This document shows positions 58,215-61,477 of a DNA stretch of 64,000 bases, one piece after another (within the stretch, counting starts at the first letter, position 1; every line of letters starts with the position of its first letter). Both the position numbers and the translations under genes were made by a program. The notes below the pieces were generated by a model. That model ran no database searches. It was not told the origin of the DNA and worked only from the letters and a program-made list of their open reading frames with translations. Origin of the DNA: Desulfomicrobium baculatum DSM 4028. GTDB lineage: Bacteria > Desulfobacterota > Desulfovibrionia > Desulfovibrionales > Desulfomicrobiaceae. The stretch is from NCBI RefSeq assembly GCF_000023225.1, contig NC_013173.1, positions 560,501 to 624,500 on the forward strand, given 5' to 3'.

Positions 58215-58721
58215 ATGCGATTTCACGGAGAGATTTCCGAATGGAGAGATGATCGAGGTTTTGGATTCATCACGCCGACGGGCGGTGGTACCAGAGTCTT
58301 TGTGCATATCAGCGCTTTGCAGAAAGGTCGGCGGCCGCGTGCCGGGGAAATGGTCACGTACGAAGTCGGAAACAGTGGAGACAAAGGGCCTCGCGCCCTG
58401 AATGTGAACTTCGTCAATGCATTACCGGGGCGTAGAAATGAGAGCCCCCGGAGATCCTTTTTTCCTGTCGTTGTTCTTGTACTGCTCATTGCGGCCGGAG
58501 CATATGGGGCAAGACGTTTTGTGCCATCCGATATTTTTCAGGCTATAAATATCAAGCAGCAGAGCCCACGTGCTCAAGCCTTCGCGTGTGAAGGGAAGAT
58601 TTATTGCTCGGAAATGAACTCCTGCGAGGAAGCACTGTTTTATCTGGACTCTTGTCCGGGGGTGCAAATCGACGGCGACGGAGACGGCGTTCCGTGCGAG
58701 AAACAATGGTGCAATGAATGA
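58215..58721 (+). CDS. Cold-shock domain, membrane helix and Excalibur-like domain fusion
   Basis: A 168-aa three-part protein. Residues 1-70 are a cold-shock domain with RNP1 RGFGFI (14-19) and RNP2 VFVHIS (28-33), predicted to bind nucleic acid. A membrane helix follows (about 82-98). The C-terminal part has six cysteines and the Excalibur pattern SCEEALFYLDSCPG...DGDGDGVPCE, with Ca-binding aspartates D153, D155 and D157. The topology would put the nucleic-acid domain inside and the Ca domain outside. The glucokinase gene starts 50 bp later. Confidence 0.85.
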   Translation: MRFHGEISEWRDDRGFGFITPTGGGTRVFVHISALQKGRRPRAGEMVTYEVGNSGDKGPRALNVNFVNALPGRRNESPRRSFFPVVVLVLLIAAGAYGARRFVPSDIFQAINIKQQSPRAQAFACEGKIYCSEMNSCEEALFYLDSCPGVQIDGDGDGVPCEKQWCNE

Positions 58722-59737: not shown

Positions 59738-59745
59738 GGAACCAT

Positions 59746-59795
59746 CCACATTTTTGTCGCGTAAGAGATGACGAAAATGTGGGGGCTTCTTTTTC
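59746..59795 (+). terminator. Probable terminator after glk
   Basis: A 13-bp stem CCACATTTTTGTC (59746-59758) with GACGAAAATGTGG (59770-59782), one G-T wobble, followed by GGGCTTC and T5. Confidence 0.75.
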
Positions 59796-59865
59796 TTTCA
59801 CTTAAAAATCAGAGAGATATGTCTGGCATGGGATCTGCTTTGGTCTTCCGTAACAGGAGGCTGCC

Positions 59866-60816
59866 ATGCCGCTCATCATCACGCCCTTCGGGGCCATTGA
59901 CGCTCTTCCGGATACAGAATTCTTCCCCGACGGGTCCGTGCGTTCCTGCATCGCCGTTCGGGCCTGTCCGCTCATCACCCCTCTTGGGATGCTTGTTCCC
60001 CAATTCACCGCCAACACCCTGCGCAAGCGGCAGCTCCCTGCCATCTCCTTTCATCCGAACGGCATGATCCGCAATCTTCCCCTGGAAGAGCAGATTCTGG
60101 TGTGCACTCCCGTAGGTGTTCTGCCCGCCGAGCAGGTCTCGTTTTATGAAAGCGGGGCCTTGAAGCGCATCTTTCCCTTGAACGGAACCCTGAGCGGCTA
60201 CTGGACTCAGGAAGACGAGGCCAAGCTGGCCACTCCCCTGACCCTGGAGACCCCTTTGGGCCCTGTCGAAACCCTGGCTATCAGCCTGTATTTCAGTCCG
60301 TCCGGAGCGTTGCGCAGCCTGACCCTGTGGCCCGACACGACTTTGGACGTACCCACTCCCTTGGGCGGCGTCGCCGCGCGGATTGGTGTGTCGTTTTTCG
60401 ACAGCGGGGTGCTTCGCTCCCTGGAACCGGCGGAGCCGGTCAGCGTGGCGACGCCCGTGGGCGAGCTCCTGGCGTACGATCCCGATGCGATCGGCATCTG
60501 CGGCGACAACAATTCCCTGCGTTTTCGCGAGAACGGGTCTCTATGCGGACTGACAAGCGCTGCGCACTCTTTTGACGTGGTTCTCGAAAATGGCCGGGTC
60601 CGGCGTCTGACCCCGCCCCTGCGGCGTCATCCCTGCGATGGCGAACGCATGGAGGCAAGCCCGCTCTGCCTTGAATTCCGCCCGGGGGTGGTCAGAATTT
60701 CCTCGGCCGATCTGTCCCGGCTCTCCGCAGCCGTGGAGAGCGTCACACCATCCCGATTTTTTCTGCCTTTGCCCAGCTTGTCGCCCATGTGTTCCATGGG
60801 CGCGGGCAAGTGGTAG
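59866..60816 (+). CDS. Uncharacterised TPxG repeat protein
   Basis: A 316-aa soluble protein made of six to seven copies of a two-part module: a TPxG element (6-9, 38-41, 81-84, 129-132, 164-167, 196-199), then a strand-turn with (S/N)G and Leu-Arg-x-Leu (19-28, 61-73, 92-105, 142-154, 176-188, 219-229, 239-250). Repeat spacing varies from 32 to 48 residues. This would give a repeated beta structure. No known repeat family fits well. AGGAGG before ATG 59866. Confidence 0.7.
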   Translation: MPLIITPFGAIDALPDTEFFPDGSVRSCIAVRACPLITPLGMLVPQFTANTLRKRQLPAISFHPNGMIRNLPLEEQILVCTPVGVLPAEQVSFYESGALKRIFPLNGTLSGYWTQEDEAKLATPLTLETPLGPVETLAISLYFSPSGALRSLTLWPDTTLDVPTPLGGVAARIGVSFFDSGVLRSLEPAEPVSVATPVGELLAYDPDAIGICGDNNSLRFRENGSLCGLTSAAHSFDVVLENGRVRRLTPPLRRHPCDGERMEASPLCLEFRPGVVRISSADLSRLSAAVESVTPSRFFLPLPSLSPMCSMGAGKW

Positions 60817-60848: not shown

Positions 60849-61100
60849 GTGAACGTCAGTTGCCTGGAAAAAGTGGTGGAATATGCATCAATGCCCCTGC
60901 ATGGGACACTCTCGCGAAAGCTCAGGAAAGGTCTCAAAATTCAGATCAATGAAGGCCGGATCTATGAAAAGTCCGTCTTGTTCCTGGGCTCGGATTTTTT
61001 GCGCGTGACCGAAAAGGAGGACGGCTTGTCCGTCAATACCTATTACGGCTGGGACGAGATAGCCTCCATCCGTACCTACAGCACGGAACCGGAGGAGTAA
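60849..61100 (+). CDS. Small hypothetical protein
   Basis: An 83-aa protein, beta-rich by pattern (LKIQINEGRIYEKSVLFLG). No family recognised. Start is GTG 60849 with AGGAGG a few bases upstream. Located after the repeat-protein gene by 32 bp, likely the last of the run. A hairpin GGGGCCGG/CCGGCCCC (61109-61116, 61130-61137) follows without a T tract. Confidence 0.6.
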   Translation: MNVSCLEKVVEYASMPLHGTLSRKLRKGLKIQINEGRIYEKSVLFLGSDFLRVTEKEDGLSVNTYYGWDEIASIRTYSTEPEE

Positions 61101-61192: not shown

Positions 61193-61477
61193 TTACGCCG
61201 CAGTCTTGAGCGTCACGTGCATTCCGGCTTTCGTGGCAAGAATGATCAGCATCTCAAGACTGAACTTCTCCCACTTGCCTCTGGTAAGATCGGAAACCCT
61301 GGACTGGCTGACGCCCAGTATTTCAGCCGCTTTGGCTTGGGTCAGCTTCTTCGTTTTGATGAACTTGCGAAGATCGGCCATAAGGTCTGCGCGCATTTGA
61401 AGAATTGCCGCTTCTTCGGGGGGGTAGCCGAGATCGCTGAAGATGTTTCCAGATGAATCGACGATGGACTCACTCAT
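61193..61477 (-). CDS. higA: HigA-like XRE antitoxin
   Basis: A 94-aa helix-turn-helix protein. The HTH spans about 45-70: LTQAKAAEILGVSQSRVSDL, in the HTH_37 style of HigA2-type antitoxins. Its ATG overlaps the toxin stop by 4 bp (ATGA), in the toxin-first order of higBA operons. Expected to neutralise the upstream-encoded toxin and repress the operon. Confidence 0.85.
   Translation of the reverse strand: MSESIVDSSGNIFSDLGYPPEEAAILQMRADLMADLRKFIKTKKLTQAKAAEILGVSQSRVSDLTRGKWEKFSLEMLIILATKAGMHVTLKTAA

What the first reader, a model, noticed from the sequence alone, without database searches (positions are those of the whole stretch)
59866..60816. New-looking TPxG repeat protein
Six to seven imperfect modules, each a TPxG followed by an SG/NG turn and Leu-Arg-x-Leu, fill the whole 316-aa protein. 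I know no repeat family with this pair of motifs. It may form a beta-solenoid-like scaffold.
Basis: partly seen in the sequence, partly recalled or inferred. Interest (0 to 1): 0.6.

Follow-up and report, generated by a model that had tools for sequence, protein, structure and literature searches.

The report
Unrecognised nitrogen-fixation protein of sulfate reducers
The repeat protein is real, and it appears to belong to the nitrogen-fixation gene set of a sulfate-reducing bacterium: its family was found only in genomes that carry a nitrogenase-assembly gene, and in front of its gene lie the same kinds of DNA signals as in front of the nitrogenase gene, so it is probably an unstudied helper protein for nitrogen fixation.

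Summary
The repeats are confirmed. Six homologous modules (residues 3-233, each TPxG then an x-N/D/S-G turn) make up about three quarters of the 316-aa protein; the C-terminal 83 residues are not part of the array. The model is all-beta hairpins, most like MORN, G-box and OspA sheets, not a solenoid. The window protein hits no Pfam, NCBIfam or PHROGs family; two of ten rescanned relatives just pass Pfam's MORN_2 cut-off.

The main result is what the gene belongs to. In a sample of 297 genomes of its order, all 119 with the family also have nifE; none of the 144 nifE-negative genomes has it, even within mixed genera. In 52 of 116 locatable genomes (five genera) it lies 6-11 kb from nifE. Away from nifE it usually has its own sigma-54 promoter plus an activator site of the nifH type: a weight matrix trained on nifH promoters finds one strong site in this 64-kb window, just upstream of this gene. 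The next gene, an 83-aa protein, is also confined to nifE genomes (68 of 68).

Best explanation: a cytoplasmic nif-regulon accessory protein acting as an open beta-sheet scaffold. Nif membership is strong; the molecular step is inferred. My literature searches listed no description.

The parts
59866..60816 (+). TPxG repeat protein, 316 aa, nif-regulon member
   Evidence: ORF; homologues; co-occurrence with nifE
59824..59839 (+). sigma-54 (-24/-12) promoter element TGGCATGGGATCTGCT, starting 42 bases upstream of the ATG
   Evidence: 10 of 12 consensus positions; 34 of 62 family upstreams have a site (>= 9 of 12) at -25 to -60, 8 of 469 neighbour-gene upstreams do; position
59745..59760 (+). upstream activator site of the nifH type, TCCACATTTTTGTCGC
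   Evidence: 13.4 bits with a matrix trained on 21 nifH upstreams; the only site >= 11 bits in the whole 64-kb window on both strands; shares ACATTTTTGTC with the nifH upstream of the same genome
59770..59782 (-). second, inverted half of the activator region, GACGAAAATGTGG on the + strand (complementary to 59746-59758 with one mismatch); could also fold as a terminator hairpin of the upstream gene
   Evidence: position; by eye a similar inverted element stands in 8 of the 9 other genomes of the genus printed (not in G007)
59872..59967 (+). module M1 (residues 3-34)
   Evidence: hhalign
59968..60096 (+). module M2 (residues 35-77), with insert 44-58 containing LRKR
60097..60192 (+). module M3 (residues 78-109)
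60175..60237 (+). conserved insert, residues 104-124 (PLNGTLSGYWTQEDEAKLATP), overlapping the end of M3
   Evidence: of residues 103-118 only 108 varies in A1 (9 sequences); F103, P104, G107, W113, E118 still >= 90% in A2 (46 sequences); low pLDDT at 109-113
60241..60342 (+). module M4 (residues 126-159)
60343..60438 (+). module M5 (residues 160-191)
60439..60564 (+). module M6 (residues 192-233), with conserved insert DPDAIGICGDNNSL (205-218)
60565..60813 (+). C-terminal region (residues 234-316), not part of the repeat array; last 14 residues low confidence
60849..61100 (+). 83-aa protein, GTG start 32 bases behind the repeat gene, probably co-transcribed; itself nif-linked
   Evidence: 68 of 297 genomes have it and all 68 are nifE-positive; in 23 of 68 it lies 3.0-4.7 kb from nifE; 60 of the 68 also have the repeat gene; no Pfam or NCBIfam match

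Best explanation
The gene is an unrecognised member of the nitrogen-fixation (nif) regulon of sulfate-reducing bacteria of this order. In this genome it is transcribed, probably with the 83-aa gene behind it, from its own sigma-54 promoter under the same type of activator site that lies upstream of nifH; the activator is inferred to be the NifA/VnfA/AnfA-like enhancer-binding protein. The product is a cytoplasmic protein (no signal sequence by eye), modelled as an antiparallel beta meander of six modules in which TPxG turns and x-N/D/S-G turns alternate, probably one open single-layer sheet. It carries three conserved inserts (LRKR/LRRR; FPLNGxLSGYWTxEDExxLA; DPDAxGIxGDxNSL). Most likely it is a scaffold or docking protein for nitrogenase maturation or protection, binding a nitrogenase component or assembly factor through these inserts. 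Shown here: repeats, all-beta fold (model), confinement to nifE genomes, nif-cluster linkage in five genera, promoter architecture. Inferred: the activator's identity, co-transcription, sheet topology, the binding role and the partner. The confidence below is for a nif-regulon accessory protein with this kind of fold; for the specific role in maturation or protection it is 0.35-0.4.
For: (1) Co-occurrence: 119 of 297 sampled genomes of the order have the family, all 119 have NifE, none of 144 NifE-negative genomes has it. Permuting family labels within genera gives 23.2 expected in NifE-negative genomes, minimum 13 in 20,000; observed 0. The three positive genomes outside the order all have NifE. 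Large nifE-negative genomes of mixed genera (for example G179 and G225, 4.2 Mb) lack it, so genome size does not explain it. (2) Linkage: in 52 of 116 locatable genomes the gene lies 6.4-11.1 kb from nifE; these belong to five genera. Fetched examples sit behind nifV, nifV-modB, or nifE-nifN-nifV-anfO-like genes, and behind nifV-like and anfO-like genes in G587 outside the order (nifE on another contig there). (3) Promoter: sigma-54 site in 34 of 62 distinct upstreams against 8 of 469 neighbour upstreams; none of 13 fetched copies near nifE has one, 34 of 49 others do. (4) A matrix trained on nifH upstreams scores >= 9 bits in 33 of the 34 sigma-54 upstreams, 2 of 28 of the rest, 13 of 404 controls, and finds one site >= 11 bits in the whole window. 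(5) The downstream 83-aa gene is nif-confined in its own right, 68 of 68, including 8 genomes without a full repeat gene in the profile search. (6) The genome has its own nifH and nifE and an activator that scores just under the NifA cut-off, 518.4 of 528.85 bits.
Against: 34 nifE-positive genomes have no copy in the profile search (one, G006, 63% complete, has a fragment), so the protein is not required for nitrogen fixation in general. 15 of the 49 upstreams of copies not shown to lie near nifE have no recognisable sigma-54 site at -25 to -60; G587 among them has nifV-like and anfO-like genes next door, G416 and G443 have a site at about -180, most of the others are unexplained. The 52 linked copies and the promoter sites come from related genomes and are not independent. 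The motif seed was chosen after I had looked at both the nifH upstreams and this gene's upstream, although only nifH sites trained the matrix. The NifA family also matches in 10 of 14 control genomes, none over the cut-off, so that search does not single out the activator. No expression, mutant or binding data exist here. The fold rests on a prediction from nine sequences, and structural matches are weak (Z <= 6.8, Foldseek TM about 0.1-0.2; the best PDB Foldseek hits are Rhs shells at probability 0.21). The inverted repeat at 59746-59782 could also be a terminator. The partner and the biochemical step are unknown.
Confidence: 0.8

Rival explanations
1. It is part of the nitrogenase regulon but does not act on nitrogenase itself: a protein for N2-growth physiology (protection against oxygen or sulfide, electron supply, nitrogen-status signalling) that shares the activator.
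For: In 64 of 116 locatable genomes the gene is not near nifE, and in the fetched loci of that kind the neighbours vary; 34 nifE genomes lack it.
Against: Where clustered it sits with nifV, modB and anfO-like genes, that is cofactor, molybdenum and maturation functions, with nifV-like and anfO-like genes also in G587 outside the order.
Confidence: 0.3
2. It is a regulator or inhibitor of nitrogenase or its activator (a NifL-like or switch-off role).
For: It shares promoter signals with nifH, and a sheet with conserved loops could be a binding surface; the downstream 83-aa protein could be a partner.
Against: No sensory domain, enzyme family or known regulator is recognised in it.
Confidence: 0.15
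3. Ordinary structural repeat protein (MORN_2 type) with an unrelated housekeeping role; the nif link is a phylogenetic coincidence.
For: Weak MORN_2 similarity in some members; the sampled genomes are related.
Against: Within-genus permutation, promoter signals shared with nifH, linkage to nifE in 52 of 116 and the separately nif-confined downstream gene are hard to get by coincidence.
Confidence: 0.04
4. A beta-solenoid scaffold of a wholly new repeat family.
For: Repeats confirmed; no Pfam match for the window protein.
Against: The strand pattern of the model reads as hairpins rather than coils (pairing could not be measured); nearest folds are MORN/G-box/OspA sheets; MORN_2 matches in relatives. 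A profile match to designed Pizza proteins, which I know as beta-propellers (E 4e-6, residues 122-184), leaves a propeller-like local arrangement possible.
Confidence: 0.05

Closest known systems
MORN_2 (PF07661, MORN repeat variant) and MORN-repeat proteins
   Same: Hairpin modules with an F-x-x-N/D-G-x-L type turn; two of ten rescanned relatives pass the Pfam cut-off; the two best BFVD hits are MORN-repeat proteins, probability 0.97, TM about 0.2.
   Different: The Pfam model is 22 positions long and the best matched stretches are 11-14 residues at the x-N-G part; the module here is about 32 residues or more with a TPxG turn and three conserved inserts. The window protein has no match.
DUF7406 (PF24155)
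   Same: 29 of 46 family members match at E <= 1, best 2.9e-5, over about 30 residues.
   Different: None of ten rescanned members reaches the cut-off of 28.4 bits; the window genome has no DUF7406 match at E <= 0.001; function unknown.
CPAP G-box / Tcp10_C and OspA sheets
   Same: Best structural matches by VIA-align, Z 6.0-6.8 for 19 of the top 20 rows; 5 of 46 members weakly match Tcp10_C at E <= 1.
   Different: Z below 8 with rmsd 7-12 A means shared architecture at most; unrelated functions (recalled).
AnfO family (PF09582, Fe-only nitrogenase accessory protein)
   Same: An AnfO-like gene is the immediate upstream neighbour in four fetched loci (L075, L081, L086, L094; one cluster), one of them outside the order; Pfam was run on the L086 copy and one search places AnfO matches at the copies in G067, G042 and G096. 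AnfO is reported as a maturation-fidelity factor (title seen in the reference list of PMC9542535).
   Different: No sequence relation to the repeat protein was seen. The L086 copy passes the Pfam cut-off but not NCBIfam's AnfO cut-off (71.7 of 129.15 bits). Of 26 genomes over the Pfam AnfO cut-off, 14 have the repeat family; the window genome has no AnfO match.
Predicted nitrogenase activator regulon of Desulfovibrionales (DVUA0143, AnfA/VnfA-like; PMC4641369)
   Same: That paper predicts an AnfA/VnfA-like sigma-54 activator for the nif operon (passages). The motif here, CTAC-N6-GTAG, has the layout of the VnfA1 motif GT(T/A)C-N6-GTAC (PMC9542535, passage).
   Different: The passages I saw list only DVUA0015-DVUA0007 and DVUA0016 as targets in D. 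vulgaris; the repeat protein is not mentioned in them. Its supplementary regulon tables were not read.

Membership tests
nif regulon of this order | sigma-54 -24/-12 promoter | tested here: met
   59824-59839 for the window gene; 34 of 62 family upstreams vs 8 of 469 controls
nif regulon of this order | activator site shared with nifH | tested here: met
   nifH-trained matrix: 33 of 34 sigma-54 upstreams >= 9 bits vs 13 of 404 controls; single site >= 11 bits in the window
nif regulon of this order | restricted to genomes with nitrogenase assembly genes | tested here: met
   119 of 119 in the order sample plus 3 of 3 outside the order have NifE; other phyla not searched
nif regulon of this order | induced on N2, needed for or modulating diazotrophy | not testable with these tools
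   no expression or mutant data for this gene found
MORN_2 (PF07661) | window protein scores above Pfam's gathering threshold | tested here: not met
   no match at E <= 10
MORN_2 (PF07661) | homologues score above threshold | tested here: inconclusive
   10 of 46 match at E <= 1; of 10 rescanned, L062 (31.7) and L084 (29.9) pass 29.6
MORN_2 / MORN fold | open single-layer antiparallel hairpin sheet | tested here: inconclusive
   model nearly all beta; Z 5.8 to TbMORN1; no experimental structure, no coordinates at hand
DUF7406 (PF24155) | score above threshold | tested here: not met
   0 of 10 rescanned members reach 28.4 bits; window protein no match; window genome none
beta-solenoid | stacked parallel strands in coils | tested here: inconclusive

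The most novel reading that the evidence does not exclude
A previously unrecognised nif accessory family: a MORN-like open beta-sheet scaffold that, with a nif-confined 83-aa partner, controls a step of nitrogenase maturation (cofactor insertion or its fidelity) in anaerobic sulfate reducers, with a regulon outpost operon far from the nif cluster.
Probability: 0.3. Interest if true: 0.75.

Novelty: new variant of a known kind. Interest (0 to 1): 0.6.

Why it matters
The set of genes needed to make nitrogenase work well is still being completed, and engineering efforts depend on knowing it. This adds two candidate nif genes (the repeat protein and the 83-aa protein). In 64 of 116 locatable genomes the repeat gene is not near nifE, so inspection of the nif cluster alone would miss it; shared promoter signals and strict co-occurrence reveal it. 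It turns an anonymous repeat protein into a directly testable hypothesis, and it extends a predicted nif regulon of a bacterial order beyond its nif operons.

Tried and rejected
Beta-solenoid: not supported by the model or its neighbours. Beta-propeller: a profile match to designed Pizza proteins (E 4e-6, residues 122-184) was not followed further. EutS, antibody chains and Rhs/Tc-toxin shells: weak or low-TM matches. Phage or plasmid origin: no match in viral contigs, plasmids or phages; a relaxed plasmid search gave three hits at E 0.07-4, and the Caballeronia region fetched from it was not confirmed by the family profile. The classical NifA site TGT-N10-ACA is not clearly enriched (4 of 62 vs 14 of 462), which led to the CTAC-N6-GTAG motif. 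Tight coupling to AnfO: rejected, 14 of 119 family genomes have it over the Pfam cut-off. I first took the inverted repeat at 59746-59782 for a plain terminator; the nifH comparison changed that, but both may be true. Distribution outside the phylum was not tested apart from plasmids, phages and viral contigs.

Dropped rows and weak points: of 66 upstreams, L009 (truncated) and three duplicates (G250, G083, G269) were dropped, leaving 62. Starts of G170, G109, G154 and G205 were mis-set; their corrected upstreams were read, show no good site, and they stay in the 'without' group. Neighbour-gene controls rest on a rough ORF caller of my own. NifE-positive was taken as 153 genomes: 149 over the cut-off plus four strong but partial matches (G007, G068, G257, G293); ten weak matches (best E between 1e-16 and 2e-9) were counted as negative. 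Three family genomes (G257, G007, G293) had no nifE position in the part's list that was shown and were left out of the distance count; genes and nifE on different contigs, as in G282, count as not near. nifH was found in 15 of the 20 nif regions fetched; six more nifH upstreams came from the neighbourhood loci. Five of 297 genomes had no RecA match but were listed with their genus.

Full report
What was claimed and what is there. The ORF 59866-60816 (+) encodes 316 aa. Six TPxG motifs at residues 6, 38, 81, 129, 164 and 196 compare with a mean of 0.16 and a maximum of 3 in 100,000 shuffles. Cutting the 46-member family alignment A2 into modules and comparing them by hhalign shows M1-M6 to be homologous in 14 of 15 pairs, while the two C-terminal segments tested are not related to them.

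Fold. A nine-sequence alignment (A1) gave an AlphaFold2 model with mean pLDDT 83.8 and pTM 0.79. The DSSP string shows short strands turning at TPxG (for example strands 160-164 and 167-177 around TPLG 164-167) and at the x-N/D/S-G turn (177 to 183). VIA-align ranks CPAP G-box domains, OspA variants and trypanosome MORN1 among its 23 chains with Z 5 or more, top Z 6.8, rmsd 7-12 A for these; Foldseek against viral models puts MORN-repeat proteins first (E 5e-4, TM about 0.2), while Foldseek against the PDB puts Rhs shells first at probability 0.21. These values mean similar architecture at most. By sequence the window protein matches nothing in Pfam, NCBIfam or PHROGs, but of 46 members 29 weakly match DUF7406, 10 MORN_2 and 5 Tcp10_C at E <= 1. 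In a rescan of ten members, L062 and L084 pass the MORN_2 cut-off and none passes that of DUF7406. NCBIfam shows nothing better than E 0.036.

Distribution. The window lies in a 3.94-Mb single-contig genome (the size matches my recollection of Desulfomicrobium baculatum, which no call confirms). Homologues are present in 11 of 22 genomes of its family, one of them a fragment. With profile A1, 119 of 297 sampled genomes of the order have the gene and 15 of 395 in a phylum sample, of which G416, G443 and G587 lie outside the order. No match in viral contigs, plasmids or phages.

Link to nitrogen fixation. Neighbourhoods of 48 loci from 47 genomes showed nifV, nifH, nifE/nifN-type genes, PII-type genes and ModB beside the gene, in varying combinations, in ten loci (nifV, nifH, nifE/N, PII and ModB recognised by eye from the sequences; AnfO by Pfam on one copy). 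I therefore searched the same 297 genomes for NifE. All 119 family genomes are NifE-positive; 34 NifE-positive genomes lack the family; 144 have neither; none has the family without NifE. Genus labels for all 297 came from a RecA search. Sixteen genera contain both NifE-positive and NifE-negative genomes; shuffling the family label within genera never gave fewer than 13 family genomes without NifE (mean 23.2), against 0 observed. The genus of the window alone has 10 genomes with both, 5 with neither, and one NifE genome (63% complete) with only a fragment of the family. G416, G443 and G587 also have NifE. In 52 of 116 locatable genomes the gene is 6.4-11.1 kb from nifE; these are 23, 12, 12, 4 and 1 genomes of five genera, so they are not 52 independent cases.

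Promoter. Upstream of the window gene lies TGGCATGGGATCTGCT, a sigma-54 element, at 59824-59839. In 62 distinct upstreams such a site at -25 to -60 occurs in 34, against 8 of 469 neighbour-gene upstreams; shuffles give 0.3 on average and 2 at most. Of the six control genes with the strongest sites within 150 bases, three are nifH or nifV, which serves as a positive control. None of 13 fetched copies near nifE has its own site, as expected if they are read from a nif operon; 34 of 49 others do. Reading the nifH upstreams revealed CCTAC(A/G)-N4-(T/C)GTAGG-like elements. A matrix from 38 such sites in 21 nifH upstreams, with no upstream of this family in the training (the seed was chosen after I had seen both), then scored >= 9 bits in 33 of 34 sigma-54 family upstreams, 2 of 28 others, 13 of 404 controls, and a mean of 1.8 of 34 (at most 6) in shuffles. 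In the entire 64-kb window only one place reaches 11 bits: 59745-59760, directly upstream of this gene. Its core ACATTTTTGTC is identical in the nifH upstream of the same genome (L104). A published regulon analysis of this order predicts an AnfA/VnfA-like activator for the nif operon (PMC4641369, passages read), and VnfA1 of Azotobacter has the motif GT(T/A)C-N6-GTAC (PMC9542535, passage), a layout like CTAC-N6-GTAG. The window genome has an activator scoring 518.4 bits against a NifA cut-off of 528.85, best of 49 matches that mostly reflect the shared AAA+ domain. That this activator binds here is inference.

The next gene. Thirty-two bases behind the repeat gene starts an 83-aa protein (60849-61100). 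It occurs in 68 of 297 genomes, all NifE-positive, and in 23 of 68 it lies 3.0-4.7 kb from nifE. Sixty of the 68 also have the repeat gene and eight do not (one of the eight, G006, has a fragment). It is also near the repeat gene in G416 and G443 (L080, L079). So in this genus two nif-linked genes form one small unit far from the nif cluster (nifE is about 290 kb away).

How it may work. The protein is small, without a signal sequence by eye, without recognised enzyme domains, and made of a sheet with three inserts that are among the best conserved parts of the sequence: 44-58, 104-124 and 205-218. Two of them contain the lowest-confidence residues of the folded part (109-113, 210-213), as loops that need a partner may do. 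Its genomic company where clustered includes homocitrate synthase (nifV), molybdate transport (modB) and an AnfO-like protein (below NCBIfam's AnfO cut-off); AnfO is reported to control fidelity of cofactor insertion (title in the reference list of PMC9542535). I therefore favour a scaffold or docking role in maturation or protection of nitrogenase. It is not universal among nitrogen fixers, so it tunes or supports rather than enables. In D. vulgaris Hildenborough the genes with data in the plasmid nif cluster are needed on N2 (PMC10102598, passages); whether that strain has the repeat gene I could not establish.

In print. Searches of the paper library for sigma-54/NifA regulons in Desulfovibrio, nif with RB-TnSeq, MORN with nitrogenase or nif cluster, sulfate reducers with nifV and transcriptomics, AnfO, MORN variants and single-layer sheets listed nothing whose title or abstract start describes this protein. 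I read passages of three papers (PMC10102598, PMC4641369, PMC9542535) and only listings of the others, no supplements, so absence from print is likely, not shown.

Verdict. A real repeat protein whose main interest is its membership of the nif regulon. My confidence is about 0.93 for nif-regulon membership, about 0.35-0.4 for a direct role in nitrogenase maturation or protection, about 0.75 for an open MORN-like sheet.

Noticed in passing
60849-61100 (+): 83-aa protein with no Pfam or NCBIfam match, found in 68 of 297 genomes of the order, all nifE-positive, 23 of them within 5 kb of nifE: a second unnamed nif-linked family.
   Followed up: partly
58215-58721 (+): One protein with a cold-shock domain and an Excalibur calcium-binding domain, with a probable membrane segment between them by eye.
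   Followed up: no
61193-61477 (-): HTH_37/HTH_3 antitoxin-like protein; possible toxin partner next to it not examined.
   Followed up: no
L084 and L085 (G113): One genome has two copies of the repeat gene (347.9 and 214.6 bits); one has a sigma-54 site and a nifH-type element, the other has neither.
   Followed up: no
L004 6136-6138 (G211): In-frame TAG near the start of the repeat gene in one metagenome-assembled genome: pseudogene or assembly error.
   Followed up: no
L079, L080: In two genomes outside the order the repeat gene is followed by a 146-aa gene and, on the other strand, the 83-aa gene and a 105-aa gene; the 146-aa and 105-aa proteins have no Pfam match.
   Followed up: no
G000:C1:667490-669007 (L124): Activator just under the NCBIfam NifA cut-off, about 46 kb from the repeat gene; best of 49 matches in this genome.
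   Followed up: no
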